The position numbers and the translations under genes are program-made. Under the pieces are notes generated by a model. It saw only the letters and a list, made by a program, of their open reading frames with translations, did no database searches and was not told the DNA's origin. From Polytrichum commune (Eukaryota; Streptophyta; Polytrichopsida; Polytrichales; Polytrichaceae), in assembly GCA_950295325.1 (NCBI GenBank), contig OX485803.1:1488001-1552000 (forward strand): a stretch of 64,000 nt of DNA, in the 5' to 3' direction. Shown here in pieces: positions 4,865-46,598 of this stretch. Position 1 is the stretch's first letter; the number at the start of each line of letters is the position of its first letter.

Positions 4865-6774
4865 TAGAGGGCAGACTGTATTGCAATTACAAAGTCAGTA
4901 CACCTTTGAGAAGCGAACAAAAAAGTTGGGCCTAGAAACTTAATAAAACAAAACTGTCTGCAAGGGTTACTGATACAACCCAACACCGAGCTCAGCAAGG
5001 ATTTATAGGTAATAATAGTCTACATGGAAATACTTGCAAATTTCATGTAGGTCGTAAGAACTCAATCTAATGTTCTGCAGCCATTTGTCAATTTGAAAGT
5101 AATCCTTTTGCCTACCCCTTTTTTTTACAAGAATTTTCATATCTTAACTTACTCTGATTTCTTTTCCAAGACTTCAACCTTTTCATCCACCTGAGGTTAC
5201 CTCCTCTCAAACTCAATTTGCAATCTACATGGAGTCGCAAAGTATGTGTGCAATCTTTTCCGCTGATGTGCACTTCAAGGTCCTGATGGATGCAGTAGGT
5301 TATGTTCCTGTTAAATCAGTGCTTGAATGCAGAAACTATGGGCCAACATTCTTATCAAACAGACAGTCCATAACAAAATCATCAGAGGATTTAACTCTAG
5401 TTAGCTCTGCCAAGATTTGTCAAATTTGATCACCACCTAGTTTAAGAACATGTAGATCTGACAAAATATAAAATCTGCACTTTAATTGTCTTTGCACACA
5501 TACATGACAGGCATCTGAACACAAACTCAATGATACAAGACCGATAAATGGATTATATATCATGTGCAACAGTGGAGACCCAAGCAGTGACAAAAAAAAT
5601 ATTAGCATGCCAGACAAGGCTATTGAGACACAGCAAATAGATACACAGGCTCACTATGGGCTAGATGCACTTTTGGTTAGAATTCATAAACAATAGATGA
5701 AGATAATCTTAACATAATTCCAAATGAATGGTACCTGCTGTATCACACTGTTGCCCAGCTCCAGGAGTACAAATTTGAAAAACAAAAGTTCTTCGTACTT
5801 TTTAGACTAGTCTTGCATAATTCTGTGTGCAGCAAGGAACACCATACTCAGGTTTCTATACTTCTACTGTCCTAAGTGATTCTAATATACCAGGTGTTCA
5901 CACATAAATTTGGAAAGCAAGCTCTTGTACAACAGTCTGGCATTTTCCAAATGCCTACGAAACTCTTCACTAAAGTAACCTTTGTAATCAAACTTCTCGC
6001 ACTGGTACACCTTGTATGGCTACAATTTATTGGTCAAAAAGAATGTGCATTAACAGCAATTTGCTGAGAAGACCGGATGAACACCCACATACTACAAATG
6101 AGATTCCTTTCCCCTGATTATCCAACTCTTGGTCATTAAAATCAAGTCCAGTCACATATATACAACTGGAGAGCTCAAATCTTGCAACAGAAACCAAAGC
6201 TTGGTGGGGATGTTAAAAAAAACATCTTTGCATGGCTGCACATCCCTGGAATATTGAGAAATAGCCCTGTGCACAATGCGGTGATTGCATTTCGTTTGTG
6301 CTTGGCCTCCAAATACTCCTTAGTGTATTGAGGGGCTCCCGCAGGGTCCTGAAGTCACACACAGTATATTATTTTACACATTGACCTGGCACAGAGCTTG
6401 AACTGCCAATCCACAACTGTTGAATAGAGGACTGTAAAAAAGAGTTAACATGCTTCTTGGATCAAATGTGATAAAACAGGCCAATTTCATAGTGAACTTC
6501 ATTCCACATGATCAGCAGCTCCTGAACAAAACACCTACACAGATTCAAAGTGGCATGTACTTTAAGGCTTTGCCAAACTATACAAAATGCAAAAACGACA
6601 CCAAGGTTTTGGTTGAAAACACATGCTGCTTCATGACAATTCCACCTCTATTTTACAGATGCCAGCTTTAACACTTGCTGATACTTAATAATAAAGATGG
6701 ACTGAAAATGGCAAGTGCTTTGTGTTACCTGGAGCATGGGGAAGTTATGGGACATTTATATGATGTCATGGCTC
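4865..6774. other. 3' flank of the RIC1-like gene; no gene seen
   Basis: Only short, unconserved frames occur on both strands. The part nearest 6774 presumably includes the 3' UTR of the minus-strand RIC1-like gene, but no clear polyadenylation site could be fixed by eye. Confidence 0.5.
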
Positions 6775-25552: not shown

Positions 25553-26370
25553 TTTGACTTGAACTAAAAGCTCAAACAAGCAAAGCAACGGGAACACTCA
25601 AAATTTCACCAAACACACTTCAAAGCTCAAACACATGAAAAGAGTGTTCAAAGGAGCCTCAAACCCTGATTAGGGTGAGTAGGTTTAGGTTAAGTTCAAC
25701 TAAGCCGTCACCTCTTTTGCAATTAGGTTTAAAAACATCAAATTTTAAGGCATTTGAATATTTTTGAGAATGAGAAAACATTCACTTGTAATAATTGAAT
25801 AAATTTCACATGTACATTCTTACTTATAGCCGATTTTAAAAAAATTGTACCAAAAGTTGAATTTTTTCTTTTTTTAGCCGAATGCAATTTTTCCACTTTA
25901 ATTAATTATTCGGCTAACATGTGTCGAACCAGCTATGAACCTACGGTATTCAAAGTCAAAACCACTATCTTCCTGAAACCAATCCCTAGGCCCGTGTATG
26001 ATGACCTTGCATATGATGAGGATCCCGCCTTCATTGCCTAGAACCAACAAAGCATGGTTGGGTACTAGACCCAAGATAGATCAAAGCCCAACTAGTAATG
26101 GTGTGCAAAGCTGCATGGCCACCTCCATGATCCCACCCAGTTCGCTTGCAAAACCGTCACATGGCATCCTAGATATTGACCCCCTTTGTGCTTTATGGGC
26201 CTACCTCCTTGGCTTTGTGAATAAAATGGCTAGAATTGTTCCTTCCCCCTGCCCCCTCTGAATATAATGGCTATAATAAGCATTGACAAGCCACCCTAAA
26301 CCCATCTTGAACCAACCTGAGATAGAGTGGAACTCATTACCTACCCTTTATGAAGGTAGTGGAGGCGGTA

Positions 26371-28025: not shown

Positions 28026-28649
28026 CTATGGTGGTGGGATAGGGTTTTGTTTGTTGTCAAGTTTCCTTTTATTTAGGACCAAATAAGTGAGGTATTTAAT
28101 GGCATTTTGGTGTATGTTTTTCATGAGGGTTTTGATGTGGGATTTGGGGATTTTCAGGTTGGTTAATTGTTCGATGGAGTTTTCGTGGATAGCACCTCTT
28201 ACTCCCGCGGTGATAGTAATTAGGGGGTTGGTATTCCATCCGTTAGCTCTTAGTGTGGTAATTAGCGGGTCATATTTGTTGTGTTTGTGTGTGCGGGCTT
28301 GTTCGGGGAATCTATCGTGGCAGTAGGTGAATTCAATGAATTGTACGGTGTGGCTTGGGGAGGGTAGTATTGGAGCTTGCGTTTGGTTGGGAGCTCCGAT
28401 AATGCACATTATGTCTGGTCTTAATTTGGCTTGACAATGACATGGTGCTTGCGTGCATATACATTGGAGGAGCCAGTCGGGAATTGTTTGGTCTTGGGAT
28501 TGGTTGGGTAAGTTGCCGCAATTGGTCAAGGTGAAGAACCTAGTGTTTTTATTGCCTTGTAGGGTTTGGGCAATGAGGTGGGTTGCTTTATTGTGTCTTG
28601 CGATTCGTAGGCCTATGGATGTTCGCATGTGGATAATAGGTGTGGTCAT
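28026..28649 (-). pseudogene. LINE C-terminal segment, shifted frame
   Basis: This 207-codon frame overlaps the end of the long LINE frame and continues it (RIARHNKATHLIAQTLQG follows the Cys/His knuckle of related elements). A TGA and a frame change near 28620-28640 separate it from the main frame. No known enzymatic motif is visible. Confidence 0.7.
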
Positions 28650-31600
28650 GTGTCTCTATCGTTGGTGCGACATAGTGTGCAGTTGGGGTTTTGGTATTTA
28701 AGGGGCCAAAATATATTTTTCCTATGGTTTCCCATGTATTGGGCATATCTAAATTTTAGAGTTTGGGTAATTTGTGTGTCGGGTATTTTATCATGTTTCC
28801 AAAAATGATTGGAGAGTTTTTGATTGATTTCTTCATTCGAGAGCCATTTGGCTACGTATGGGAATTTTTGTTTGGTTAGTGAGGTTTCTCGATTTTCGTG
28901 ATCTTTCATTATGAATGTGTGGAGGTTGCGGATGGCTCCATCATGTGTAGCCGTGGGGGAGGTTGCTAGCCAGTAGGGGGTAGCGTGTGCTATGTGTATG
29001 TGTGGCGTGTTTTCCGGTTTGTCTTTGAGTGTTCCTTCGTTGGCTAGTGCGTCCGCCATTTCATTGCCACTAATTCCCGTGTGTGCGCGTACTTTGTGTA
29101 TGTGTATCATGTGTGGGGTCCAATATATTTGGTGAACGATGGCTGCAATGAGTAATTTATCGGGGTGGTGGTGTTGAGATGTTGGGTGTTGGATGTGGTT
29201 GTTTATTAGGTAGATGTTGTTGAGGCTGTCTGTGAATATATGTGTGTCTATTTGGGTGGTTTGTATGGTTTTTATGGCTATAAGTATGGCGTTGAGTTCG
29301 GCTCTTAGAATATTGGGATATCCCGGTAATCTTTCGGCTATTTGGGTATTGTTGTTGGGACTGTATACCCCTGAGCCCGCGATATTGCCGACTATTTGTC
29401 CCTCGGAATTTTTGGAAGGTGGGATGAAGGACCCGTCCGTATATATGCATTGTTGTGGGTGGTATTTGAGGGGGTGTATTTGGTTGTATGCGGGGGGTAG
29501 GGGTAGTGTTATGTTGTTGTTGGGGGGGATGGTGTGGTTTGTGGGAGTGGTTTTCCATGTTTTGGAAAATTTAATGTGATAATTGTTGGGAGTGGGTTGA
29601 ATGGGATGGATGTCTATATGGGTGTTGGTAATTCTTTTTAGGACTCTATTTAGATTGTTTGGGAATTGTTGGTGCAATGTTGGGGTTAGCTGGTTGTGTA
29701 TGTATATGATGGATGTGAGTGATGGTTCCGTATATTGGTAATATTGTGGCCATTCTGGCGTGGGTTTATATTGTATGGTATGGGGTGGTATGGTAGAGAT
29801 GACGTGGATATCTGCTCCTTTGGTGAGGGTTATTTTTTGCGGTGTCCAATTTTGGTGGTTAATTATGAGGATTGTGCTTGTTTGTGGATCTTCTTTGGCG
29901 GCCATTCGGGCCCAATGAATGGCTTGTAAGGTTGTACTATAGTCTGTTGGGAATGCTAGGCCCCTACCACTCCATTTGAACGATTGTGCATGTCCTAGGG
30001 ATCCGAATAGCATGTCGTGGGTGTGTGGGGAGTGGTATTGTGTGAGTTGTGTGGGACACGTAAGTGGGGAGGAATAGTATGAGTGTATGATTTTGAAGGA
30101 GTCTATAAGTAATTTGGTGATTTCCGAGTGTATTGTATGATGTTGATTGTTGGGTAGTATGTGTTTAGGTTTTTTCTTGGGGAGTATGGTAATGTATCTT
30201 TGTATGAGCCATAATATTTCTGTTTCGAAGTTTTGTACTGGGGGATGTAGGGAGTTGGTTAGGTGGGTTAGGTTGTTTTGAGAGAAGCGTGCCCATAGCC
30301 ATTCTAGTCTTTCCGTGGTAATGGTGGCGAGGAATTGTCCATTTTGGTCGTATATGTGGGATACTGCGGCGCTTGTTTGTATGGTAGGTTTATTGGCAAT
30401 GATATCTTTGTCTGGATTACATTCTTGTGTGGATGTTTTGAGGTTGGTGATCCTAAGTGGGGGGTGTATGTGTTTTTTATCCTTTGTTTGGGTGTAGTCG
30501 AGGTAGTGGTCGTATGTTTGGGTGGCTTTTTGTTTGTGGGTGGTGGTGTGGTATCTTGTTATTAGTAGGAGGTTGTGTTCTAACAGTATGTTGTCCGGGT
30601 GTAAGAGGTCCTCTTCAAGGCGCCATTGTTGTGTGGTGCCATGCGTAGTGAGCCATTGACATAGATATTTTATTTTGAAGGCTTGTGCTCCCCATTTGTC
30701 CTTTCGGTTGGTGGTTTTTGTATCAACTATTTCATGGATGGTCCGTCCTAGTGCGGGGTCCACTCGGTGGGGTTGGTGGTTAAGGTCTAGGGTGTTATTT
30801 GTGGGCGTTGTGTGTGGTGGTTGAGGATGATTTTCAAGGGGGTTGGGTGTTGTTGTGATCGGGAATATTATTGTGGCTTGGTGTAGGGCTTCTTTGATGG
30901 TTTTGGGTGCGAGTTTGTATATGTTTCGGTATTCCTCTTGTGTGAGTGTGACCTTGGTGTTCTTGTTTTGAATTTGTGCTAGTGTTGTGATGCCATGTGT
31001 GTAAAGTTTGTCTAGGTATTTTTGGGATTTTGTTTTGGAGGCATCATCAAGGATGGTGTATATTCGGTTGGATAGCCATGCTTGCTCTAGTGGGGTTTTC
31101 CGAAGGGGGAATGCTCGATTGGCCGTAGTAACATGTATTTCGTATTCTTTTGTGAGAAAGAAGAGGGTTCGGGCTATGGGTGACCTTGTACATGCTTGTT
31201 GTTTAAGTTTCGGGAGGTGGAGTGAACCTCCGTATTTAGCTGCTATGTATTTAGTTAGGCCTTGATATATGTCGCCTAGTTGGCCTGGATCGTTGAGGGC
31301 TTGTAGTAATTGTTGGCCTATGCAATGTATGTAGTCGGATAAGAGGGAGGAGACTCCTATGCCAAACTTTTCATTTGTGAGGTGCGTGAGAATGTTGGCA
31401 GAACTTTTGGGTATGTTGCATATTTCTTTGGTTAGTTTGCCTATTATTTTATCCAATTTCGTAATGTCAGGTTTGGAGAATGAGACTGTATAATATGCAT
31501 ATGCTATACGGGGTTTTATAACTGTGTTTAGTATCTTGATTTTTTGTTTGAGATTAGCTGGGGATAGGGCTAGTAGTTTATTTTGTTGTTTAGCTTTTTG

Positions 31601-32266
31601 GAGATTGATTTCCCTTTGTAAGTTCCATTTGAGGGATGGTATGAGTTGGATACCTAGATAGGTGTATGATTCGTTTTGTGTGAGGGTGGGAAATTTTTTG
31701 GTTTTGTATGTGACGTTGTGTGATTGGATATACGCTTTGAATGTATTAGGCTTTAGTTTCGATTTATTAGGACAACCTGTAATGGCGCATATCGAAATGT
31801 TAAGGTCCATATGTGACCATTCCGCAAATTTTTGTAGTTTTGTGATTTGGGGTTGAATGTTTTGGATGTTGTCGGTTAATATTGCTAAGTCGTCCACGTA
31901 TGCCGTGGTGGTGCATATGGATGTGGATGTATTAAAGTGATATCCGAGGTTGTCTTTTTCTAACCATCGGAGTAGAGGTTCAAGGAATATAATAAATAGG
32001 TAGGGGCTAAGAGTGTCCCCTTGTATGATACTGCGGCTTATTTGTATTGGGGGTGTTATACCAAAGGTATTACCGGCAAAAGAAGTGGTTGAATTTTTGT
32101 AAATGTTGTCAACTATTTTTACCGTGTCTATGGGGAAGCCTAGGTCTTCCATGAGGGCAAGTAGGCAGGCGTGGTCGATAGATCCAAAAGCGTTGCGGAA
32201 ATCAATGTATGTAAGGTAGATATCTTTGGTGGTGAGTCTAGCGTCTTCGAGGGCGGCAATAATCAT
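28646..32266 (-). pseudogene. LINE reverse transcriptase-RNase H polyprotein, long open segment
   Basis: A single open frame of 1206 codons contains the reverse transcriptase palm: YIDFRNAFGSIDH (motif A), QGDTLSPYLF and TAYVDDLAIL with the YVDD box. A long linker follows, then an RNase H domain near residues 940-1090 with its acidic residues in TDGSFIPP, RAELNAIL, FTDSLNN and GNEMADALANEG. It ends in CTLCRTNDRDT, the start of a Cys/His knuckle. Because the N-terminal reverse transcriptase blocks upstream are interrupted by stops (for example after SQEGF and after EIPNY), the copy is not functional as a whole despite this long open part. Confidence 0.85.
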
Positions 32267-32726
32267 TTGGATTTGTCGGGATGTGTTTCGTTGAGGTCAA
32301 AAGCCTTCTTGGCTAAAATGTAGAATACGATGTTGTTCTCCGTAGTTGGTGAGAAGAGTCGTTATGGTACTAGTAAATAGTTTGTATATGGTGTTGGCGA
32401 GGGCGATTGGCCTATAGTTAGCTAGGTGGAGGGGGTCGTCTTTTTTATGTAATAGGATGGTTTTACAATGTTTCTAGTAGTTTGGGATTTCTCTTTGTTT
32501 GTAGCATTGCCGAAAAAATAGGAATAGCATATCGTGCCATTGTGGGGGTAGAATTTTTATTATGTCGTTTGGTATATTGTCTGGGCCGGAGGCTTTCCCC
32601 CGAGTTAGTCTTTTGACGCATTTGTCATATATTGTCCGAGTGAATTGGGTGCTAATAAGTGTGTTATATGGGCCTATTTTGTCAAGTATGATATCATTAT
32701 TTGTGTGTTATGGATATTTGCGTATG

Positions 32727-32736
32727 GCGCACATAC
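32727..32736 (+). repeat. Target-site duplication of the MULE, left copy
   Basis: GCGCACATAC is repeated exactly at 46589-46598. It lies within LINE sequence, and collapsing the two copies restores continuous LINE similarity. Confidence 0.93.
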
Positions 32737-32810
32737 GGGGAAAGTTACAGCATGAGCGTAGAGCGGTGAGCGTCATGTTTTCGTGAATTTCTCCGCTCAC
32801 TTTTAAAAAA
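32737..32810 (+). repeat. MULE terminal inverted repeat, left
   Basis: It contains CATGAGCGTAGAGCG at 32751-32765, matched in inverse orientation at 46560-46574. The outer 14 bases are diverged between the two ends. Confidence 0.85.
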
Positions 32811-34497
32811 TTTATTGAAACGTAAGGATCCTATTACCACTGAATTTGGTCCGGACAAAATTATAAATGTATATTTTTAGGGAAAAGAGTACCCCAAATC
32901 CGTGGAAGGGGTCCTACTGCAAATTTTTGTTATTATATATATAGTGAAATTAGGGCTGACGTCATCATTTATATGAAAGGGTGATTTAAATGAGGACCGT
33001 TCAAGGTTGAAATGAAATTGTGTTTTAATTAATTCACAAATTTATTTTAGTGTTTAAGGCTAAGGGCGTAATTAGGGCTGGCATCCTCGAAGCAATAATT
33101 TAAATGAGGAAGTTTATACAATCCAACAAGTGAATATTCTTGTGCTTGTTAATCGGTAATGTGGTAGGTCCCCTCAAATATGTTCATTAGGTATTGCGTC
33201 TAGGATGGGGATCATACTATGGAGTATATAGTCCGATCTTTTTTATTTGTTTGGGTTTCCATTTTTGTAGCTACATCTAACCACATACCACTCAAAGATA
33301 GGTGTTCATTAAGATAAGCAACTGAATTAAGCACGTCTACTTTAAGTCCAAAACCTCTTGACACATGGCTCTTTTGAAGTGGCTAGAAAAGGGTGATTAT
33401 CACGTACGAGCATAACTTTCATCCATACATTATCTAGACTATACAAACTAATTATGAATAGGTGCCACCTCAAAAAAATATATTCAAATAACACACTCCA
33501 ATGTAACTTATTTAAATTGTTGAGTCTCCCATGCAATATACTATAAAGTCTCTTGTATTAACCTCCTTATTGACATTGCTTCTTATATCTCAAAACCCTA
33601 AAGAATGGATGTTTTGATTTTTAATTCTCACTCCTTATTTTCATAATTCCCTCCCATACATCACAAATTTTGACATTGATGCTAGAACTATATGCTAAAT
33701 TATATGATGCACTTGACCATATTTACACCATAAATATGGACTTCAACTTAGTACTTAAATGGAGAATTTACCTCGTTAAGGAGATTAAAATATTCTATGA
33801 CAGGTTGCTTCTTTAAGAAACGACTAAAGATGGAGTATAAACAAGAATTTTCATTATTATTCTCGCCAAGGCCCCCTCTGAACTTAGGCAACTTTTAAGG
33901 GTTGGCAATCATTCAGCTTTTTCAGTTAGTACAATGCTGCAATTAAAATTGGCAGCATGAGCCCATAAACATAACCAAACGCCCCACGGGTGTTTGGAGG
34001 CAATAAAACTTATTTTTTTTTGTGTTAAACTGCTATTCATATTTTAAAAAATGCAAAATAACCATTGAAGGAAATGCATTGTTCTTCTAGTGAGATTATC
34101 CAATTGAAGAAATGAGTTGAAACTAGGGTTCAACTACGGTAGCATTTATGGAAGAATACAATATATATTTATATATTTCTAAGCTTTAAAATAAATAAAA
34201 TGCACTTCAACAATTTATATACAATTGACATAAAAACGGAAGACATGTCCTTACTAGGTTTTGTCAAATAGATTCACTTGAGTGTTCAAGTTTGAAGTGT
34301 GCACATGCATTTCAGTGCAAAGGGCTTCACTCAAACTTTCAAACTTCAACTTCTTTGAACTTTTTTGAGAAGTCTAGAACTATAGCTATGACACAAAGAA
34401 ACTTGTAAAAGTTTTATTATAAAAATAAATGGCCATTTCAAATGGCTACATTATGCACGTGGCGAGAGAAAAGAAACAAACATATGGATAGTCTTGA
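32811..34497. other. MULE left subterminal region, non-coding
   Basis: No convincing gene is present. At 33270-33350 lies sequence related to the 3' end of family C (see 1861-2236). The rest is AT-rich. Confidence 0.5.
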
Positions 34498-37400
34498 TCA
34501 AGGTGAACCAACATCGAAACTCTCGTCACATTGATCAGCCTCGACATCCATGTATCTAAGCATTGTAGGGTTGAAAACTTGACGTGGAGAATCTGAAAGG
34601 ATTGGAGATGGGGCGCGTATGAATTCCTGTGCTATACGTTCGGCATATGAAGGTAAGGCGAACAAAGTAGGAGGACTCATGTTGACATCAGCGTGGCGGA
34701 TCAAACGTCGTGCGAGACCTGCGTCACAAATTATAAAACAAAGTCAGCATGACAAATTATATGAATACATTAAATGTTTGAGAGACTTAAGACATGTAGT
34801 TAAGACGCACCGCAATACTTGCGACCCTTCTTCTTCTTTGGCGCAATGTCTTCCTCAGAATCAGAGTCTGTGGTTGAATCCGCGCGCTCTTCTGGTTGCG
34901 GGATCGCATCCACGTAAGGCTTGAGAAGCGCCTCAAAGATTTCTGAATCCGGCTCCAACGCGATGAGGTGTCGGTTCGAACGTTGGCAAGCAATGACAGA
35001 AGCACCTGCAGTTTGGAAAACGGAAATTAGAAAGTGGAATTCAATTTTAGCTGTTATAAACGATGAATGGAGAGATTGAGAACCTGTACTAGGGCTCCAG
35101 TCGCAGACGATATCACGCTCGTCTGTAAGACACTCGATGAAGCACTGAACAAAGGATGGGTCCTTCTCACGCGAGCCACGCCAAGGAAGTCCAGTAGGGC
35201 GTAGAAGCTGGGACTCGGTTGTCGTGAAGTTCGTCAAGTCATCGCGCTCTTCGGGAAGGATCTCCATTTGTACGAACTGCGGTCGCAATCGGCGAGTACG
35301 GAACTTGGAACTAAGGCGTAAAAAGACCTTAATGTTGAAGTTATGGGTCTGTAAGACAACCTCAAGGATTAGAGGGTTTTGAAACTGATTGTCGGATTGA
35401 GAAATTCAAATTATGAACATAAAAGATAATACCTCTTTCTGGTGTGGAAGGGAGGAGGCCATGGGAATGGGATTATAGCCCCACCAATCCCGGACAATCG
35501 TAAAATCATAGATTTTGATTTTACTATCTAACTTCTTCTCGATTCGACGGTCCTTGGGATGGAAGAGTATAACAACTCCGTCATCGGTCAAATGACAATC
35601 TGCGAAGGCGAAGAGTTGGTCAAAGTAGTCTGTCTCTCGCTTGTTCCACGATGGTACAGACATGGGGGAGATGACAGGCACGACCAAGTCTTCTGGAGCG
35701 TCAACAATCACGAGATCAATTCCAGGATGCCTAAGCCGCATTTGCATCGATTCACAAGGATAAGTACGGCCGACCCCGATCTGTATGAATGAGAGTAGTG
35801 GAAAGCATGAGTTACCGAAAATAAAAAACCTCAATAGTCCAAGACAATTTTCAAATTGATAGTGTTAGTGAGATATGGGATTGTGTGACCTTGATAATGT
35901 GGTCTACGATACGGACAAGTTGTCGATCCATGAATTTCTGGTGTTCAGACTGGTTAAGCAAGGCACAGAAGTTTCCATGCTCAAGAAACATCGGCAGGGT
36001 CGTTTTAAACGGCGAAGACGAAATGACACCTACACCTTTCGGGGGTGGTACACCACGGCCAGAGTGTGTGACATGAAGAGTTTGGCTAGATTGAACATCC
36101 AAGTTGGAAAGTGGAGGTGATGGCGGATTAGAAACCGTGCGTTGCGAAGTGTGAGTCGAAGCCAAAGGAGGTCCCGCCGGAATTTGAACTCCTGCAGGTG
36201 GGGCTGCCACAACGGAACCATCGCGAGAACGAACCTTCCCTCGACGTTGAACTTTTGGCTTCGGAGCAGGTTCAAGCTGAATTGCCTCCTCTTCGTCGTC
36301 GTCGTTTAAGTCAGTGACCATAGGAGCCGCTCCTCTTGCAGATGGTTCCAGGACAGGGACGAGGTGTTTCTCCTCCTCAGGAACGAAGTTCGGTGGGCAC
36401 TCGAGGAACCAACCACCTGTGAGCAACACATCATTGGGAAATCGATTGCGTTGGTCTTCAGTCCAAAGTTCATCAATAGGCGTTTGGGTGGACGGTTTGA
36501 GCTCAACATGAGCCGGAACTTCCCAAGCCGCAAGAGCACGTTTGGCGATGAGCTCTTGCTTCATGTACCTGCATATATGCGTTACATTTAGTAAGGGTGA
36601 TAGAGACAAAGAGAACACTGAATCAAACAAGAAATCAAATCATATAAACCTGTAAAACAAGCGGCCCGCTAAAATTCCACCTTCAATCTTTAGGAGGTCT
36701 GAACCTTTCAGAAACCTTGGGCTTGCATTTTCCGAGAGGTAGAAGGGGAAAGCCTTCTTCCACAATAGAGACCTCCATTTCTTCACGTATTCCGCCGGCT
36801 TGAGAACAACGGAGCTCCACTCAATGTTGATCTTAAGTTTAGCGACATAGTTGTCGATGTGGTCATTAAGGAAAGTAGACAACTGACATACATTATGAAA
36901 CGATGGGTGTTAGAAGTAACGACGATTACAACGGATTAAAAATGAAGAGCCTAGAGGAATTAAGTATCGTCATACCTGAGACCAGAAAGAAGCCCTTGGC
37001 AACCAGGCGTCGAGGAATTTGTCCTTCATTGGACGATCTAGAGGAAATCGGTAGGCTGCCCGTTTCTCGTCCGTTCCGTTCCACAATTGCAACCATTTTT
37101 CTTTGAAGTCTGGATGGACCTTGGTGGTTGCAATTTTATGAAGACGCTCAACGGTCAAGTCCAATGATTTCCCACTAGTATAGTGTTTATTGAGCTGGGT
37201 GGAAAATGGATATTTATATTAGAAAATTTGCGAGTTGAGAGTTGAGAGTTGATAGTTGATAGTTGAGATGAGAGTTGATAGTTGAGAGTTGAGATGAGAG
37301 TTGAGAGTTGAGAGTTGAGATGAGAGTTGAGAGTTGAGATGAGAGTTGAGAGTTGAGAGTTGAGATGAGAGTTGATAGTTGAGAGTTGAGAATACCTCTT

Positions 37401-38817
37401 GTTCAAATAACTCTCTATTGGCTGGGTTGGCGATTGCAACCATCTTGTCGAACATTTGGCTGCGCCAATACTTGACACACTTCGTGATGGCCTTGTCCAT
37501 CGCGCTCCAGACTCCAGGCCCAGTCCTTTCATTCTCGGGCACGGTCTCGTAATAGTTCGAGCAAGCAGCATCGGATGCAGCAGCGCATTGTCTCTGTACG
37601 AAAATAATTGAGATGCAAGAAACGCATGATGCAATTCATAATATGAAAACGATAAGCACATAACTTTAGAAAACTTACCGCGTGAAGGAATTTCACGAAA
37701 ATGTCCATGGTGAGTGGATACCATGACGGTACACGGGGTTTATAAGCCTCGCAAATAGTCATATCCTCTTTGCTAATAAGACCTTTGAAATGAGAAAGTT
37801 TGAATGAGCCTAAGGTTCGAATTCTTTGCAACTTGGCAATAGTATTGTCTTGAACATGATCATGTTCCGTCAACCTGTAAGTGACGATATGAGTATTAAA
37901 ACAAGGCTTCCCTGAATAAATGTAATATGAAATTAATTCAAATGGATTTGGAACTATACGTACCAGTTGATATCGTTCATGGCGTTGAGGAGCCTTGAGC
38001 ATTCCCCACGTGCGTCGAGAACAATACAGTCAACAGAAATGTACCAGTCAGGATTATTGAAATGGTACTTGTGGATATAACCCATCCACGCCGTCACGCG
38101 GTGATTGCCTTCGTAAACGTAAAAGTATTTATTCCGAAACTGATGGAGATCAGTATCAGAAGACAAATACTCTTCGAATTCATCATTAGCAGCCTTCCAT
38201 AGCGGGTTAGACCAGATGGCGTCATCCATTCGAACCGCAAGGTCATTGTCCGTGATGTCGAAAGGAGACACATACAAAACTCGATCTCCTTCTCGATACC
38301 CTTTGACGAACTCGTTCGCCAACATCTGGACGTCCGAATCGACAATTGGACGAACCTTCGGGTAGGTCTTGAGACGACACAGAGGAATTAGGAATCGAGA
38401 CTTCTTAATGGGTTTGGTGCGAAGATTGGAGATGACGCTATTGTAGTCACTCTTTTGCAGCAATCTCATCTCATTTGCGCTCCACATGGGGTCCTTGTCC
38501 TGCAGATGAGGGGGCATGTGAACAATGCCAAGTTCAACACCACCATGAGGAAGTAAGGGTTTACCTGAGCGTTTGTCGCTTGAATCGGGCGTTTCTTGAG
38601 TGGCATCTTGTATGGTATCGGCTTCCGCCACATGATGGCTAATATCGAAAGTGTGATGATCGGAGGATGGGACATTCGGAGGAACATCCTCTTCCACTTC
38701 GGGAACATCTGGGCTTCGAGAATGTTGACTGTCCGGGGGAATGCTAGAATCCTCCTCCACGGATTCTATCGACGGAGGTGGGACTTGATCAGGCATGGGC
38801 ACATCGGATAGTGTCAT
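34498..38817 (-). CDS. ParB-like/beta-class DNA methyltransferase-like fusion protein in the MULE, 10 exons
   Basis: Exons: 38817-37964, 37874-37679, 37593-37396, 37194-36976, 36882-36650, 36568-35890, 35780-35433, 35348-35084, 35005-34811, 34718-34498. All borders are GT-AG and in phase; the total is 3408 nt, 1135 residues. Residues 1-110 are acidic and Pro/Ser-rich. Residues about 150-255 look like a ParB/sulfiredoxin fold (VRPIVDSDVQMLANEF, then EGNHRVTAW at 236-244). Residues about 285-590 are unrecognised; about 600-790 are low-complexity. Residues 794-1040 follow the order of a beta-class amino-methyltransferase: DLVIVDAPEDL (motif IV position, DAPE at 820-823), CHLTDDGVVILF, then DPSFVQCFIECL and DWSPSTGASVIACQR...HLIALEPD (motif I position, 992 onward). 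A KKKKGRK stretch near 1058 may be a nuclear signal. The usual DPPY and FxGxG are altered, so catalysis is uncertain. The start could also be an exon edge, since CAG precedes the ATG. Confidence 0.82.
37222..37394 (-). repeat. Minisatellite inside intron 3 of the ParB/methyltransferase-like gene
   Basis: About 170 bp of nearly pure GAGTTGA/GAGATGA-type units (7-8 bp, grouped into 26-34 bp higher-order units) fill the 201 bp intron between exons 3 and 4. The ORFs running through it are artefacts of the repeat. Confidence 0.9.
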
Positions 38818-39062
38818 CTGGAAGGTAGGTAAACGAAACACAAAACACTTAGAAAAAGTATGAAGTAGTATAAATGACGACTAGCTAAGAAAGTGGAAAA
38901 ACGGCGAAGCAACTTGGAGAATACAATGTTGTAGTCATTCTCCGCTCAAAGCACTCTATCTATAGAAGCATGCACATAGGAATTAAACGAATATAGATTA
39001 GAAAAAATGCGCCATCATGAAATCACAAATAAATAAACAAATTTCAAGAGCAAAGTCAACAA
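38818..39062. promoter_or_regulatory. Upstream region of the ParB/methyltransferase-like gene
   Basis: This spacer separates the start codon from the 168 bp tandem repeats. No clear TATA box was identified, and a 5' non-coding exon cannot be excluded. Confidence 0.3.
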
Positions 39063-39545
39063 TTTCAAGAGCAAACTCTGAAACCCAGAAAAAAACCCAT
39101 TGCAGCTCATGAACCTACCTGACCTAACATCAGGACCCTACTGAAATTGCAAATCAAATATCAAGCAAAAAAAAAATGTTTTCAAAAATCTAACCTCAGG
39201 ACCCCTACGCCAGCGCAGGGGTCTCTCCATTTTCAAGAGCAACTATGGAACCCAGAAAAAAACCCATTGCAGCTCATGAACCTACCTGACCTAACATCAG
39301 GACCATACTGAAATTGCAAATCAAATATCAAGCAAAAAAAAAACGTTTTCAAAAATCTAACATAAGGATTCCTGCGCAAGCGCAGGGGTCTCTCCATTTT
39401 CAAGAGCAACTCTGGAACCCAGAAAAAAAACCCATTGCAGCTCATGAACCTACCTGACCTAACATCAGGACCCTACTGAAATTGCAAATAAAAAATGAAG
39501 CAAAAAAAAATGTTTTCAAAAATCTAACCTCTGGTCTCTCCATTT
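39063..39545 (+). repeat. Three tandem copies of a 168 bp unit
   Basis: Units begin at 39063, 39231 and 39398 with TTTCAAGAGCAA and share AAACCCATTGCAGCTCATGA and CCTACCTGACCTAACATCAG. Each includes an A-rich run and CGCAGGGGTCTCTCCATTTT near its end. The third is shortened. They lie just upstream of the minus-strand gene and could act as promoter or silencing-nucleation repeats, but that is inference. Confidence 0.9.
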
Positions 39546-39671
39546 TTGAAAAATCTAACCTCGGCCTCCCTCCTCCGACGTCCCGTCTCCTCCCTCCTCC
39601 GACTTCCCCTCACCTTACCTCCACTTCCCTCGGCCTCCCTCGTCCCGAACTCCCAAACAGAGTTGGGACAC

Positions 39672-40123
39672 TGCCGCCTGCCGGAGGGGCGGGGCAAGGT
39701 TCGGGAGACTTTGGAACTCAACCAGCTAAAATCCGGCCCTTCCCAACATCTACCGGTTTCTTCAGAATTTGACCGGTTGCAAACTTGTTGCCATTAATTT
39801 GGACCGGCCAATATTCTATAATATGTTTTTTCAAGTGCCGGTTAATTTATTCTTCATTGTAATGACAACCGGCCAAGAACTTGGGCATGTGTTGCTCCTA
39901 CTTAACACATGCCCAAGTTTTTGGCCGGTTGTCATTACAATGAAGAATAAATTAACCGGCACTCGAAAAAAAATTATAGGATATTGGCCAGTCCTAATTA
40001 ATGGCAACAAGTTTGCAACCGGACAAATTCTGAAAAAACCGGTATAAGTTGTGAAGGGCCGGATTTTAGCTGGTTAAGTTCCAAAGTCTCCCGAACCCTG
40101 CCCCGCCCCTCCGGGCAGGCAGC
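39672..40123. repeat. Foldback element / long inverted repeat (about 450 bp hairpin)
   Basis: The left arm (39672-39890) and right arm (39905-40123) are inverted copies with few mismatches. They share CGGAGGGGCGGGGCA next to the outer end, AACCAGCTAAAATCCGGCCC, and ACATGCCCAAG by the short loop near 39897. A transcript would fold into a long duplex. It may be a foldback-type MITE that inserted into the MULE. ORFs over the arms are not genes. Confidence 0.92.
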
Positions 40124-40444
40124 AAGAGAACTAGATGCCTACCCCTTCTAATGCTACCAGAACTAGATTGCAAGTCACTATAAGATGGAATGGGTTCCAC
40201 CTCACAATCCTCTCCCTCACAATCACCATATGTGATTTTACTGGATGTGTACTTTTTATCATCCATATTATGGTTGTATTCCATCTGTTAACATTTATAG
40301 AGTCAAATTTGCAAATAATGGAGTAACATCGTTTCATCGTCAACTGCCTAAGAAAGACATCTATAATCAGGTGACCAACAATCGATATAAACAATCGTAA
40401 TATATCCTTATGACATCTACCCAACATGTGTTCCTAATCCATCG

Positions 40445-41131
40445 TCAAATTATCATAAACATCGAATTTCCAGGGTTTGGGATAAGTACCAGGAATCCTT
40501 CATCTAATTCTTCTTCCTCTCCTAGTTTCTTGCAGTCCATCACATCGCGTTCTTCGACTTGATCTTCGTTGGGTGCGCCCTCAATTGCAGCACTTCCGTG
40601 CTCGTCTTGCTGCCCAAAAATTTCACCAACCAGTGTCTCACTTTCTTCGTACTATACACATCAACGCAAGGTAGAATATGACTTAGGTTTAATACTCATC
40701 TTTCAAGGCTTTAGGGTCTTGGAACTTACAACTTTATCGATCCCTTCTTCGTCACTGTCATGTTCAAATCCCAAAGAATCACTCCTCGATGATGAGGGCC
40801 TTCTACATTCTTGCTCTTCAATTTCATTGTCCCTTTCCCCTCCATCGTCTTCTTCTTCACCATTAACATTTTCAACAACAGCATCCAAGTTCAACGGCCG
40901 CATCTCGATAGTCTTTCTAAACATTCATGGCTCGTCCTCATCGTTCTTATCTACTTCATCTACTATTCGATCGTCTTTGCAAGAACCCGGGGCATCCCTC
41001 TTCCGCAACGCGTTCCGTCGCAAAGCCTTGGCTCCACTGAATTTTATACCACCTCTCTTCTTCTTCCTCCCCCGCCCTCCCTCATTCACTTTGTCTGTTT
41101 TACTACTCGTATCCTCCATAGTTGGCTCCAT
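40445..41131 (-). CDS. Small basic/acidic protein gene of the MULE, two exons, one internal stop
   Basis: Exon 1 is 41131-40730 and ends at a strong donor (GTAAGT); exon 2 is 40651-40445, after a TATAG acceptor, and ends in TGA. Phases agree, giving about 202 codons. The N-terminal part is strongly basic (GGRGRKKKRGGIKFSGAKALR), then come acidic stretches (DEVDKNDEDEP, NGEEEDDGGERDNEIEEQE) and an acidic C-terminal part (GEEEELDEGF). A TGA interrupts exon 1 at 40925-40927. The composition suggests a nuclear or chromatin-associated accessory protein, but I recognise no domain. A TATA-like AATATAAAGG lies about 100 bp upstream. It may be a nonsense-mutated copy. Confidence 0.55.
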
Positions 41132-41688
41132 AGCTGATCAAACTACACAAATTTGTAGAACAATGATAACACCCTAAACCGAACTACAACACAACTTGTA
41201 TTTGAATGACCTAGTCCACCGAATCCCTTTCCTTTATATTTAATTTCTAGGAAGCTACGTCATCGAATTATAATCCCGCGTTTAATAAAACGCGGTATCC
41301 GAGATTAGGTCACTGACAACACTGACATCGGTTACTAATCTATTTTGAATTTGTCGATATATTTACGCATCTCCCTTGACAATGACGGCCTCCATAAATT
41401 TTCAAATTATCATATGTTTCCATAAAAGGTTCATACACCTTTAGGGTTTACCTTCATCATTTCGGCGTAGCATATATTAGGTTATCAAGAATGAGTTATT
41501 TTTTAGTTCGTAGGAAAATTAGTCTATACTGACATGTATCATATTTAGGGGTCATAAGGTAATGACTATTACTGGAGTACATTCTAATCCTACATGAAAC
41601 ATGTTGTCTAGAATTGACATGAATAAATATTGACTATTAATTGATCTAATAGGTTGTCATGTATTTGGGTATTGGTGTCTACCCAAGG

Positions 41689-41698
41689 TATATATAAT
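41689..41698 (+). promoter_or_regulatory. TATA box for the plus-strand MULE transcript
   Basis: TATATATAAT lies 53 bp before the ATG at 41751, a normal distance for a short leader. It is the best core-promoter signal in the centre of the element. Confidence 0.55.
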
Positions 41699-41750
41699 AC
41701 CCGATTATTGGTACCCTTTCTTTCATGTCATCTCATCATATTCTTCTCCA

Positions 41751-42182
41751 ATGGGTACTGACTCATGTCTCCCAAGCCTTGCTCCATTAGGTGCTCCTAG
41801 TTCATCGCAAATTCACACCACGTTTTCATTCGATGGTTCTCCAGGCGTCAACAACCTGAAGATTTTCAACCCACCTGACTGCTTAGTTACTCCGGCGGTC
41901 GTCGTTCCTAAACCATAGACTCCATCTTTGCAGGCAGTTGATGCAACACTGATACAGAACAAGTCTACTTTCAAGATTCATGCATATTCTAGAGCAGGTG
42001 TTATTAAACCTGGCACTTACTCTAGATCCATATTCAGGAGTGCCAAAGGTCAGAAACCCGATTGCGCAGGATGCACTGCAGTTCGTAGTTTAGGGATTGA
42101 CCATTGTCATAAACATGACGGTGACAAATATGGCAAAGGGCCCCATATGGCAAAGGCCCCATTTTCGTCTGGCACTCCATGA
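41751..42182 (+). CDS. Short Cys/His ORF upstream of the transposase, one internal stop
   Basis: The frame runs 144 codons from the ATG just after the TATA box, with a TAG at codon 56 (41916-41918). The C-terminal part has CAGCTAVRSLGIDHCHKH, a possible zinc-binding cluster. It ends about 190 bp before the transposase start. It could be a separate small accessory protein, or a 5' part of the transposase transcript joined by splicing that I cannot see. No family is recognised. Confidence 0.45.
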
Positions 42183-42375
42183 TTTATTGTTCACAATCCT
42201 GTTCATACATGTTATTATTATTTCTCATATTTAACCAAACATTTTTTGACTACATTCTGTACATGTCTGGGATGTCCAACGTCTTCATCAACCTCTCATG
42301 TATATATCCCATTGTTTCTTTTCGATCCCTCTTTTGCAAATTCCCTCTCCCATTACATTGTCAAATTGTTTCTCA

Positions 42376-45300
42376 ATGTCTTCCGCTGCTGTCCAAGCTC
42401 CACTCGTCGATGTCATCGAACTTGTTTCTCCTGGATCTCTTATCCCTACATGCATACCTCCTGGCCCTGATGGAACCACTGATCTCACTCCCCAGTGGCT
42501 ATCCATTCGTTATGGTTTCGATGCTGATAGCTTGTGGTTAGAGACAGATGTTGTCGATCCGGATACTCGAAATGTCCTTTATTCCTTATACGTCCAGCCC
42601 GTAACGTTAGACAATAATGCTTGCGTTTGGAAACTCAAGCCTGGAAGGTATCGCGTCTTTGGCTTGTTGGAGTCCATGAACGCGACTACTGTCCTACTCA
42701 CTCCTCGCAGTTCCTCCACATTGTGCACTGAAGCCCCCTTACTGTCTCGTGTCAAGATCGAACCAGGTCTCCGCGTTAGCATCGATTTGTCTGATTCTTC
42801 TGATGAAGAGGGGAGGCCTTCCCATCCATCAATCCGGTCTAGTGCTAAGCGTCCATCTCCCTCATCTTCTCAAGATTCACGTAGGACTACTCCTTCCCTT
42901 ATACCTTCGCAAACTACTAAATTCATAAACATTCTTCCCTCCCTTCGTTCCCTGGGTAGTATGCCTGGAAGCAAGTCAGTACTTAAAAAGCTGAATTATG
43001 ATTCCATCCGTACTGAGATTGTAGATTTCCTGCCACCGTCGTTCAATGGGGATGTAATCTTCATTCTTCCTCCCACACTTCCATCTGCCCTCCATAAGAA
43101 TGCTAAATCTATGGAAGGTATGGACAAACGTTACGATGGCCATATATGGACAAAAACTATGACTACTAACATCAGTAATACGCTGGGGCTGTCATTCCGG
43201 TCGTCTAACTGTGTAGGTCATTTTCAATGCCACAATCCCACATGTGGGTTCCTGCAGCGGCCTGAACGCGCATATGGAGTGAACGAGGTCGAGTTCGAAG
43301 GTTCTTCCAAAGATGTTTTCCCTGTTGCAGACGCTCCACCTCCAACTTCAACATTAGTCTGTAAGATCTGTAAAAAACCTCCTGTTTGTGTAGCTTCTTG
43401 TGATGCAAAAATCTTTTACGTTTTTGGAGATGATACGCAAGAGCGTGCTTGCGTCCATGTAGGCAACCACAAACATCCTGTCAAGGTAGGAGACTATAGG
43501 GGCACGCGGAAGATAATCGACGATTTTATCGAACAACATGTTGAGCGCAACCCGCAGGCTACCATTTCCAAAACAGTCTTGGAAACGTCCAAGGATGTTT
43601 TAGGTAACGTCTTGCTCCGCGAAGAAGACAACCCTCCCACCTTACTTTCTCTCGAACAGCTAGAGCCTATCTTCCAATGTTGCAAGGAGCTCAATTCCCC
43701 TAACTTAAAAAACCGTGTCTACAGTTTCAAGTATTTGCGCAGATATGGCGTTCTTGATGGCATCACTAAGCTCAGAGGGCTTAGCAATTGGGCCTACGTG
43801 CAACGAAACATGTTTCCAGGCCAAGGTGACAACTCTGACAAGGTCTTCATATTCAAGATGTCCGAGGTGGGACCTGGCAGCGGTGTTGACCTTGTCCGCC
43901 GAATGCAACCTAGCGGCGATTTAGAGCACTCCTGGATGATGTTCGACCACGTTAAACGAGTTGCCAATTGGACCACCATGGCCTGCCACGTGTACGACTC
44001 CTCTTACCAACGTGTACTCACCATTGCTTGCTGTGATTTCCTGTCTGAGGACAAAGATGCTCAACTCGTTTTCTGGAAGAACCTTAACCATGTCATGGGT
44101 AGGCATGGAATACACAAGCCGCAGTTCAAAGGTTTCATGGCTGATAGTGCGCAAGCCAATTGGAACGCTGTGCGCATCATCTACGGATCCGGAGACCCAA
44201 AGATACCCATGGAAGGCTGCGAGCGAACGTGTTATTTCCACTGGGCGCAATCCCTAGAAAAACACACCAAACAATACATCGTGCACGAATTGCAAGATCA
44301 ACACAAGAAATTGTGTATGCAGTACAAAGATGCACGGTCTGTGGCAGAGGCTGAAACACGTTACTTGGCAATCAAAGCCTGGTGGACATCTTCGGGTGCC
44401 ACCTCTGACGCTGGCCTCCACCATTTGAACCACTGGCTTGCGTTTTGGCATTTCCGATACAGGCAGTGGGGTGGATTCATGGAACTGGTAAGTATACACT
44501 CTTTCATTCAAATTATTTAATTCTTTAAGTTTGCATTCTTTTCTCTGCGTCTAATGTAGTATCTAAACAATATTAAATCTTTTGCTTTTAAATGGCATGG
44601 CCCACCACGATTACTCCTTGCTCACTTGAGTTTCCGAACATTTTCTAAACAGTTGCCTTCATACAGGAGAAGAAATATTCTCCGGATGAACTAGGTGAAA
44701 TGCCCTCTTGCAACCTTGCTGAGACCGTTCACAACAAATGGTTGCAAGCATCCGGCAATAGGGGTGGCGATCTCTACGTGGCAGCCGTCGACGATTACGT
44801 TAGAGCATTCCTGCAAGTGGTGGGGTACTATCAATACCTCAAAGGTGGAGCGGGAGGCTCTGGACCCTCGAGAGAAGAACTTCGACTTTGCACATCCCAA
44901 CGCCGAGCTCACCGAACCGGGGATCCGACTACCCTGAACGCAGCCGTCTTGAACATGCCCGGAGCCGAAGATTTCTGTACTCGAAACGCACACCTCGAAG
45001 GAGCTGAGGTTTTTGGGTCGAGGAAACGGAAGCCGGATCTTCCCCTTGGCGCCGAAGAAGAAACTCATAGGCCAGACACTATTAATTTTTCACGTCCTCG
45101 AGTGGGTCGGAGGGTGACACGTGCTCGTGCTCAAAATTTGAGTACCATCCATGAGGAAGTTCACGTGGAAGTGGAACGCCCAGCACAGCCCCCTGCCTCA
45201 ACTGGCATAGATATTGGACGGGTGACAGCCGTGGAGGAGACTCGTGTGAATGAGAAGCTATGGCACATTGCCCGAATTAATAAGGTTTCTGCGAAGGCTT

Positions 45301-46132
45301 GTTGGGCGCAGATGGCTGTCACTCGAAAAAAGTGTACAGCCCGTATCGTCCAAAACGGGAAGAGCACACCAGCTCCCACATACACTGGCCTTTGGACCCA
45401 CCCTCAAAAAGGCAACCAGAAGGTGGTAGAGCAGTTTTTTTTTTCTGTGCTGACGATATTGAGAGGTGTGTGAAGGGGTATCGTCGACGATGGATAGAGC
45501 CATTTTCGGATTACGAGGAACAACCTCCCATCCCATCGGTTTGGCCTGTGAAGATAGGGACCAATCTCACACGTTCCGAGATTGAGGTGTTGGAGAATGC
45601 GGGATTTCAACTTCCCCAAAAGCAAAGCGTTCCTGTGAGCCGCACATTCAACAGTTCAGCACCGCCACCGGATCTGTCACAGGTTCCAATGCCAGATAAT
45701 GCGGACGTTTATCCTAAAACACGAAAGTCTAAGAACATGCGCCGCTCAATCACTTGTGCCAGTTCGAAGCACATGCAGAACTTTGATTCCGCTAGAGCAA
45801 TGAAGGCAAGTATTCTGAAGGTAGTAATGATACCTCAATCCGGTTTTGGATGCGTTGTAACTTTGCAATCTAAACCAGCTCCCACGGAGTCAGTTTACCA
45901 TCTCTCAATCAGTGCCTACCCAGACTGCAATTGCCCGGCGTTCAAAGAGACAATGGCTAAGCTGGGTAGACGCAGGTGTCCATTCCGACCTTGTAAGCAT
46001 CTTTACTATATATACGTACAAGTCTGCAAACTAGAGGCCGACCATGACCTCTTCATGCATGCGCCTACCCTCAGTTTCTTGGAGGTGAAAACAATTCTTG
46101 AAAGGGGGATCTTAGCCCATGCTACAGTTTAG
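42376..46132 (+). pseudogene. MULE transposase with C-terminal SWIM zinc finger; single frameshift in a T10 run
   Basis: Exon 1 is 42376-44487 (704 codons) and ends at GTAAGT; exon 2 starts at 44667 after a CAG acceptor and keeps phase. I chose the ATG at 42376 (MSSAAVQAPL); the frame is open back to 42298. Cys/His clusters near residues 300-375 (CHNPTCGF, CKICKKPPVC, CVHVGNHKH) fit an N-terminal DNA-binding domain. The catalytic region contains VYDSS (Asp about 541), FMADSAQANWNAV (Asp about 590) and CERTCYFHWAQSLEKH. The C-terminal SWIM pattern CNC...PCKH lies at about 45925-45995. At 45435-45444 ten T residues shift the frame: the upstream frame ends at about 45473 while the SWIM-containing frame runs on to 46132. 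In MULEs this protein binds the TIRs and cuts the element out. Confidence 0.85.
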
Positions 46133-46559
46133 AGTAATCAGCTTTATTTATTAGTCTCATATATATGTTTTTTTTCATAAACGTGTATGACACACGTCAC
46201 TCTATGTAATTTCACAATTTAGTGAATACGTATATATAAATATATATTTTTTTTTTCGCTATGTTAAATTTATGAATCACTTGTACTTGTCCTTCACTTG
46301 TGCTCTTCCGTGAACATGTGTCCTTGTAGTTCTCTTCAATGAAGTCAGCTATTTCCTCCAAAACTCAGTCACATATAAATTTTTTCCATATGTCAAGCCC
46401 ATTTTGCACGGTTATGGGTACTAAATTCCACGGCCATAAGGCTCAAATATTTGGATATTATGAGGAATATACCATTTAAAATAATAATGTTTTATTTTTG
46501 GAAATTTTATTACTAAAAATAAAAAGTCTCCGCTCGAAATTCAGAAAATCTACGTTCTA
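46133..46559. other. MULE right subterminal region, non-coding
   Basis: AT-rich, with a T run and TATATAAATATATA near 46230-46250. No gene is seen. Confidence 0.5.
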
Positions 46560-46588
46560 CGCTCTACGCTCATGCCCTAGCAACGCCC
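46540..46588 (-). repeat. MULE terminal inverted repeat, right
   Basis: It contains CGCTCTACGCTCATG at 46560-46574, the inverse of 32751-32765, and ends at GCAACGCCC before the duplicated target. Confidence 0.85.
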
Positions 46589-46598
46589 GCGCACATAC
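46589..46598 (+). repeat. Target-site duplication of the MULE, right copy
   Basis: GCGCACATAC is identical to 32727-32736. Confidence 0.93.

What the first reader, a model, noticed from the sequence alone, without database searches (positions are those of the whole stretch)
32737..46588. 13.85 kb multi-gene Mutator-like element with exact 10 bp target duplication
TIRs with a shared CATGAGCGTAGAGCG core, a perfect GCGCACATAC duplication and restored LINE continuity define the element precisely. It carries two divergent gene groups, a hairpin and tandem repeats, and is much larger than typical autonomous MULEs of 3-5 kb. It looks like a self-contained system of transposase plus accessory proteins.
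Basis: partly seen in the sequence, partly recalled or inferred. Interest (0 to 1): 0.9.

Follow-up and report, generated by a model that had tools for sequence, protein, structure and literature searches.

The report
Jumping gene with swappable methyltransferase-like module
This is a large jumping gene, in what is probably a moss-like plant genome, that carries besides its cut-and-paste enzyme a bacterial-style methyltransferase-like protein next to repeated mirror-image DNA sites, and the protein and its sites seem to be exchanged together like a cartridge.

Summary
The element is real. Its ends and 10-bp duplication are exact, and 9 of 10 further paired-end copies read from the same genome have 9-11 bp duplications at the same termini. 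It holds two divergent genes: a MULE-like transposase, and an intact 10-exon gene for a 1,147-aa protein with an N6/N4 DNA-methyltransferase-like domain (Pfam PF01555 in 4 of 4 relatives, best E 1.7e-4) and a ParB-like motif block. Of 63 transposases listed genome-wide, 44 have this gene within 25 kb, all head-to-head; shuffled mean 1.1.

The unexpected part: on nearly identical ends and transposase, the 8-kb segment with the second gene exists in two versions whose proteins are about 40% identical. Each has its own 24-bp palindrome, repeated upstream of the gene, and neither palindrome occurs in the other version's copies at up to 3 mismatches. In 8 further loci the pattern is mixed: two have clear palindrome repeats, five have none or one.

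ParB-methyltransferase accessory proteins are already reported in algal transposons (PMC12477816), so the kind is known. My searches found no report of the MULE-like setting, the palindromes or the exchange. Most likely the protein binds its palindromes and marks or shields the element; untested.

The parts
32727..32736 (.). left target-site duplication GCGCACATAC
32737..32800 (+). terminal inverted repeat, accessory-gene side; copies of the ends vary in number of a 7-bp GTAGAGC unit
33142..41210 (.). segment that differs between type A (this copy) and type B elements: accessory gene, palindrome array, hairpin; apart from 100 bp at about 33955-34054 it has no blastn match over 60 bp in type B copies
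34498..38817 (-). intact 10-exon accessory gene, 1,147 aa, all introns GT-AG: exons 38817-37964, 37874-37679, 37593-37396, 37194-36976, 36882-36650, 36568-35890, 35780-35433, 35384-35084, 35005-34811, 34718-34498
37964..38817 (-). exon 1 with ParB-like block (YVYEGNHRVTAW)
   Evidence: fold not tested
34811..35780 (-). exons 7-9: N6/N4 DNA-methyltransferase-like domain, motif order IV (DLVIVDAPED) then X/I (DWSPSTGASVIAC)
37232..37391 (.). minisatellite in intron 3 of the accessory gene
39063..39531 (.). 167-bp tandem repeat array upstream of the accessory gene (about 2.8 units here, 11 in copy C3_40.7)
39200..39223 (.). type-A palindrome, 1 mismatch to GACCCCTGCGNNNNCGCAGGGGTC
39367..39390 (.). 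type-A palindrome, 2 mismatches
39681..40114 (.). 434-bp imperfect hairpin, 91% self-complementary; full in C3_40.7, one arm only in C6_9.55, not matched in the other eight copies
41273..41298 (.). inverted repeat ATCCCGCGTTTAATAAAACGCGGTAT upstream of the transposase
41754..42182 (+). small ORF with an internal TAG; dN/dS 1 or above in 6 of 9 comparisons; doubtful gene
42376..44487 (+). transposase exon 1 (704 aa), zinc-binding-like Cys/His block and first two acidic residues
44667..46132 (+). transposase exon 2, with a reading-frame change at a run of T near 45434 in this copy; C-terminal SWIM-like Cys/His motif read by eye
46525..46588 (-). terminal inverted repeat, transposase side
46589..46598 (.). 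right target-site duplication

Best explanation
It is a two-gene, MULE-like DNA transposon. Shown by sequence: the transposase gene and both ends form a constant part, and an exchangeable segment holds a ParB-like/DNA-methyltransferase-like protein plus repeated palindromes between the two divergent genes. Inferred: the protein recognises its own palindromes, assembles on the array and there methylates adenine or cytosine, or binds SAM without catalysis, so that the shared promoter region stays open and expression is self-controlled, as VANC proteins do by other means in Arabidopsis VANDAL elements. Specificity changes by exchanging protein and palindromes together.
For: Transposase DNA differs as much between A and B types (mean 6.0%) as within A (6.1%), yet the accessory genes are saturated at synonymous sites between A and B; blastn homology between window and B copies stops at element position 405 and resumes at 8475, except for 100 bp. 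Palindromes at up to 3 mismatches: A-type in 5 of 6 A copies (1-28 sites; the sixth, C4_53.4, has a variant), B-type in 5 of 5 B copies (8-24 sites), none of either in the other type. B sites: 64 exact genome-wide, control 0; of 50 listed, 42 lie between paired element ends and 8 within 7 kb of one end. A sites (four free central bases): 103, control 0; of 54 listed, 51 lie between one pair of ends 41 kb apart and 3 in two elements with both genes and one matched end. Between A subtypes with 127, 167 and 274-bp repeat units the only array matches, 18-51 bp, are the palindrome with short flanks. B and F proteins are closer to each other than to A (dN 0.46-0.48 against 0.65-0.68) and their palindromes share CGGATCCG. 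Methyltransferase: PF01555 in 4 of 4, PDB DpnA E 1.6e-4, phage methylases best E 1e-3. dN/dS 0.19-0.21 in the ParB-like part and 0.18-0.28 in the methyltransferase part in the two older A comparisons.
Against: No binding, methylation or expression data. Catalytic motif IV is D-x-P-[E/D] in the 4 aligned proteins, without the usual aromatic residue, so the enzyme may be dead. Of 8 additional accessory loci, only L045 and L051 have clearly repeated palindromes; L048 has a few dispersed, L047 and L050 one each, L049 one outside its array, L044 and L046 none. L048, L046 and L049 are 97-98% identical in the ParB-like exon but do not share a palindrome, against simple protein-site tracking. The window copy keeps two degenerate sites. 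No significant Pfam or PDB match for the ParB-like block; no significant phage match; its fold could not be predicted because the machine stayed busy. dN/dS in recent pairs is high and noisy (methyltransferase part 1.73 and 1.17 in two of them).
Confidence: 0.55

Rival explanations
1. Catalytically dead methyltransferase: the protein is only a sequence-specific DNA-binding factor that recruits or blocks host machinery, or represses its own promoter.
For: Motif IV is DAPE/DVPD/DIPE/DLPE instead of [DNS]PP[YFW] (consensus recalled), while the SAM-binding glycine motif is conserved. In 4 of 5 B copies an extra perfect palindrome lies about 400 bp upstream of the modelled part of the gene; the true start of the B gene was not determined.
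Against: D and P of motif IV and the glycine of the SAM motif are invariant in four proteins about 40% identical, which suggests more than scaffolding.
Confidence: 0.45
2. The palindromes are not targets of this protein but sites for host factors, or by-products of repeat expansion, carried along with the exchanged segment.
For: Five of 8 further loci have no palindrome or one, and near-identical proteins (L048 against L046 and L049) do not share one. Co-transfer of neighbouring DNA needs no functional link.
Against: The palindrome is what remains shared between otherwise diverged arrays of A subtypes, it differs between A and B, and the listed genomic sites all fall in or near these elements.
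Confidence: 0.33
3. The accessory gene is a captured passenger without a role in the element.
For: Several copies carry stops in it, and MULE-like elements are known to capture genes (recalled).
Against: Head-to-head pairing in 44 of 63 transposase loci of 92-100% and 59-62% identity, and also beside a transposase at 43%; purifying selection in older comparisons; similar proteins in algal transposons of another superfamily (PMC12477816).
Confidence: 0.06
4. The protein helps transposition itself, for example marking newly replicated copies or bridging ends, rather than countering silencing.
For: A ParB-like spreading and bridging function and methylation-timed transposition are known in bacteria (recalled). 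The ends carry 7-bp tandem units.
Against: The palindromes are inside the element, not at the ends.
Confidence: 0.2

Closest known systems
ParB-like plus DNA methyltransferase accessory protein of the Ectocarpus Sola1-1_Ec32 transposon (PMC12477816, passages read)
   Same: A 1,104-aa protein with ParB-like and N4C/N6A methyltransferase domains, transcribed opposite to the transposase of a giant DNA transposon. The authors suggest that such proteins may bind and epigenetically modify their own transposon, and cite similar ones in green and red algae.
   Different: Sola1 superfamily in a brown alga, against a MULE-like transposase with 9-11 bp duplications here. The passages read mention neither palindrome arrays nor exchange of protein and sites. 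No sequence comparison was made.
VANDAL elements with VANC anti-silencing proteins, Arabidopsis (PMC5735166 passages, PMC10398659 abstract)
   Same: Element encoding a transposase and a fast-evolving protein that recognises short motifs in variable tandem repeats in noncoding parts of the element; related elements differ in target motif.
   Different: VANC proteins are shown there with DUF1985 and DUF287 domains; here a ParB/methyltransferase-like protein and 22-30-bp palindromes.
Bacterial ParB-parS partition system (recalled)
   Same: ParB-like block and clustered palindromic sites near the gene.
   Different: No partner ATPase seen among the two genes, eukaryotic transposon context, methyltransferase-like domain; binding not tested.
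Phage and bacterial DpnA/CcrM-type DNA methyltransferases
   Same: Permuted motif order and SAM-binding region.
   Different: Divergent catalytic motif IV.

Membership tests
Mutator-like elements (MULE) | 9-11 bp target-site duplication | tested here: met
   10 of 11 copies read, window included; C3_40.7 shows none
Mutator-like elements (MULE) | terminal inverted repeats | tested here: met
   short imperfect repeats sharing GCATGAGCGTAGAGCG
Mutator-like elements (MULE) | match to Pfam MULE transposase and SWIM domains | tested here: inconclusive
   no hit in 10 relatives of exon 1, nor in the C-terminal exon frame and P0035; the planned genome search with PF10551 did not complete
Mutator-like elements (MULE) | DDE triad with C-x2-H | tested here: inconclusive
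   D524, D590 and H622 invariant, C619 nearly so, in 10 relatives; the glutamate (NLAETVHN, exon 2) assigned by eye
N6/N4 DNA methyltransferase (PF01555) | SAM-binding region matches family model | tested here: met
   4 of 4 members, best E 1.7e-4; the window protein alone 0.092, 13.1 bits against a curated cut-off of 26.7
N6/N4 DNA methyltransferase (PF01555) | catalytic motif [DNS]PP[YFW] (recalled) | tested here: not met
   D-x-P-[E/D] in 4 of 4; so it is filed as methyltransferase-like, not as an active enzyme
ParB/Srx superfamily | family-model or fold match | tested here: inconclusive
   no PDB match to the 16-row profile, no ParB Pfam hit, only weak ones to other families, DUF1015 at E 0.04 the best; structure prediction not run; the GNHR-x2-A motif and the published description of a similar algal protein support it
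VANDAL/VANC anti-silencing system | loss of silencing marks on cognate copies | not testable with these tools
   needs methylation and expression data
Transposon ParB-methyltransferase accessory proteins (algal) | single protein with both domains encoded opposite the transposase | tested here: inconclusive
   opposite orientation and methyltransferase domain met, ParB part inferred; no direct sequence comparison with the algal protein

The most novel reading that the evidence does not exclude
A eukaryotic transposon family carries a partition-like self-recognition system: a ParB-like protein loads on element-specific palindrome arrays, spreads along the element and writes a non-CG DNA mark (6mA or 4mC) that labels the element as its own and shields it from plant silencing. 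Specificity evolves by cassette exchange of protein and sites, as restriction-modification specificities do in bacteria.
Probability: 0.28. Interest if true: 0.92.

Novelty: new variant of a known kind. Interest (0 to 1): 0.8.

Why it matters
Transposon-encoded ParB-methyltransferase proteins have been noticed in algae, with a guessed function. Here one genome holds at least 137 matches to the accessory exon, and two different protein-palindrome pairs sit on one transposase backbone. That is a natural specificity experiment: each protein comes with its predicted target. It makes the question of how a transposon recognises and epigenetically marks itself directly testable, and could link plant anti-silencing systems to bacterial DNA-modification and partition machinery.

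Tried and rejected
Several independent accessory proteins: the minus-strand ORFs splice into one gene. The small ORF 41754-42182: dN/dS 1 or above in 6 of 9 window comparisons, 0.43-0.69 in 3, not claimed as a gene. The exon 2 (EX2) dN/dS values were computed in a wrong frame and are disregarded. The first spliced-protein search drew its words from the first 500 residues and gave one hit; exon 1 alone gave 74. The viral-contig scan with the transposase found no relative; the end-core scan of viral contigs gave 7 loci with one match each, taken as chance and not examined. Weak Pfam hits of the ParB-like exon were looked at once more and dropped. Phage hits for the ParB-like block are not significant. 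Organism: not named by any tool; named protein hits from Ceratodon (P0116, 54%) and Adiantum (P0001, 25%) suggest a land plant, probably a moss; inference only. 'Restored LINE', a genome-wide count of the F palindrome and a direct MULE profile comparison stayed untested for lack of an answer. On checking, the mixed palindrome picture in the 8 further loci was stated more fully and the main confidence lowered from 0.60 to 0.55, the novel case from 0.30 to 0.28, the palindrome rival raised from 0.30 to 0.33.
Full report
The observation. The duplication GCGCACATAC flanks 32737-46588 exactly and is not expected by chance; the two ends share GCATGAGCGTAGAGCG in inverted orientation. In the host genome (408 Mb, 64 contigs; organism not named) the 15-bp core occurs 48 times, the reversed control never. 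By position these include 17 neighbouring +/- pairs; 11 of the 17, window included, were read in full (and the window). Those elements measure 11.6-18.9 kb, and 10 of 11 have 9-11 bp direct repeats right at the termini; the exception is C3_40.7. Six pairs, spaced 16-91 kb, were not fetched.

The genes. The minus-strand ORFs join into one 10-exon gene with GT-AG introns throughout and no stop, coding for 1,147 aa (my own spliced aligner, given that protein, returns it from the DNA with 9 introns). Pfam finds nothing in the whole protein. A profile of the C-terminal domain from four relatives matches DpnA-type adenine methyltransferases in the PDB (E 1.6e-4) and CcrM weakly (0.38). Each of the four matches PF01555, best 1.7e-4, the window's own only 0.092 and below the curated cut-off. 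The 15 phage records shown of 64 with a tblastn match carry methylase or methyltransferase annotations (best E 1e-3, most not significant). Motif order is IV then X/I, as in permuted DNA methyltransferases (recalled). Motif IV reads DAPE, DVPD, DIPE or DLPE. Exon 1 carries a conserved block around E-G-N-H-R, which I read as ParB-like. This is not proven: no PDB match and no ParB Pfam match, no significant phage match, and the structure prediction never ran.

The plus-strand gene codes for a transposase with 92 relatives at E <= 0.001 in the protein collection. Invariant residues fit a DDE enzyme with C-x2-H; the glutamate in NLAETVHN and the C-terminal CxC...CxH were assigned by eye. No Pfam MULE or SWIM match was found. 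In the window copy exon 2 changes frame at a run of T; by the hit coordinates, four copies (C1_54.0, C2_37.6, C6_36.3, C6_44.2) stay in one frame across exon 2.

The pair is a unit. Genome-wide the transposase query gives 63 listed loci and the accessory exon 137 (both lists are lower bounds). 44 of the 63 transposases have the accessory exon within 25 kb, and 44 of these 44 are head-to-head; random placement gives 1.1 on average and 5 at most in 1,000 shuffles. 19 transposases have none listed nearby, among them C5_25.3, which does contain a type B gene that the capped list missed. From the other side, 46 of the 137 accessory hits have a listed transposase within 25 kb. Three accessory loci of two other families, chosen from that list, were fetched as 16-kb stretches. 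All three carry a divergent transposase: F_C2 57% in exon 1, its near-identical sister F_C5 52% in the C-terminal part that was fetched, F_C7 43% in exon 1.

The exchanged module. Six copies (A) have an accessory exon 1 that is 83-100% identical to the window's (C6_36.3 lacks the middle of the gene). Five (B) have a protein that is about 40% identical, although their transposases are 92-94% identical. DNA homology between window and B copies is confined to element positions 1-405, 1219-1318 and 8475-13852 (matches over 60 bp). Transposase distances are A-A 6.05%, B-B 1.85%, A-B 5.98%, and A forms one clade (support 1.000) in an unrooted tree. Transposase synonymous distance from the window to B copies is 0.11-0.14, while the accessory genes are saturated. 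Replacement of a segment in one lineage is the simplest reading.

The palindromes. The region between the genes carries tandem arrays that vary in unit and number in 10 of 11 copies and in the other families read; L048 has only a 28-bp repeat. In or near them sit palindromes: A GACCCCTGCGNNNNCGCAGGGGTC, B CAATCCCACGGATCCGTGGGATTG, F GAGGCCTCGGATCCGAGGCCTC (a second one, CCCACGGGYGAACRCCCGTGGG, in the same elements), L045 GACCCTCTCGGNNCCGAGAGGGTC, L051 GGAAGTGCTTTCGGAGCAGAAAGCACTTCC. Block-shuffled controls give 0-2 perfect palindromes per sequence. In 22 sequences tested against eight palindromes at up to 3 mismatches, no palindrome appears outside its own family; F_C7 and L050, which share one, are 94% identical in the ParB-like exon. 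Spacing is 64 bp in B, 127 or about 167 bp in A, and mixed in F. Between A subtypes the only array matches are the palindrome with short flanks. Genome-wide the B palindrome has 64 exact sites and the A palindrome 103, controls 0; of the listed 50 and 54 sites, 93 lie between paired ends, 8 within 7 kb of one end, and 3 in elements with both genes and one matched end. The unlisted 14 and 49 sites were not placed.

Against the reading: among 8 further accessory loci, L044 and L046 have arrays and no palindrome, L049 one palindrome outside its array, L047 and L050 one, L048 a few dispersed; only L045 and L051 show clear repetition. L048, L046 and L049 have 97-98% identical ParB-like exons but do not share a palindrome. 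C4_53.4 has a variant of the A site, C6_9.55 one site, and the window copy two degenerate sites.

Selection. Accessory gene dN/dS is 0.34 for the window against C3_57.6 and C4_53.4, lowest in the ParB-like and methyltransferase parts; close pairs give 0.41-0.88, with values above 1 in some small parts, as may be expected when dead copies are included. Transposase exon 1 gives 0.19-0.26 against six copies and 0.36-0.54 against the other four.

Mechanism. Sequence shows a constant transposase part and an exchangeable part with protein and sites. That the protein binds its sites is inferred from co-exchange, from the site being what diverged A arrays still share, and from the shared core of B and F sites. 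That binding counters silencing or controls expression is inferred from position between the two divergent genes and from VANDAL/VANC, where VANC binds short motifs in tandem repeats and induces loss of methylation (PMC5735166 passages; PMC10398659 abstract). Whether methylation occurs is open.

Prior work. [quoted passage not shown] The kind is therefore known. In the MULE survey PMC6446971 the words moss, Physcomitrella and methyltransferase do not occur in the main text. I found no report of palindrome arrays, exchange, or a MULE-like or land-plant case in eight paper searches, of which I saw the listings; they cover open-licence papers only.

Noticed in passing
window 28646-32296 (-): Open 1,216-aa LINE-type ORF with RVT_1 and RNase_H matches plus an at-threshold PCIF1_WW match (E 1.9e-7) between them.
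   Followed up: no
window 39681-40114: 434-bp hairpin, whole in C3_40.7 (99%), single arm in C6_9.55, unmatched in the other eight copies; could be a source of hairpin RNA or a nested insertion.
   Followed up: partly
G000 C2:69421661-69462971: A pair of ends 41 kb apart whose spacing is partly explained by an array of at least 51 A-type palindromes at about 169-bp steps.
   Followed up: partly
element ends, copies read: Terminal repeats carry a variable number of 7-bp GTAGAGC units, possibly transposase sites.
   Followed up: no
type B copies, e.g. C2_22.7 element position 5053: One extra perfect palindrome about 400 bp upstream of the modelled part of the accessory gene in 4 of 5 B copies; a stop lies about 10 codons upstream of the modelled part without an ATG, so the B gene start is unresolved.
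   Followed up: partly
window 24650-25597 (-): 315-aa open frame outside the element, not identified.
   Followed up: no
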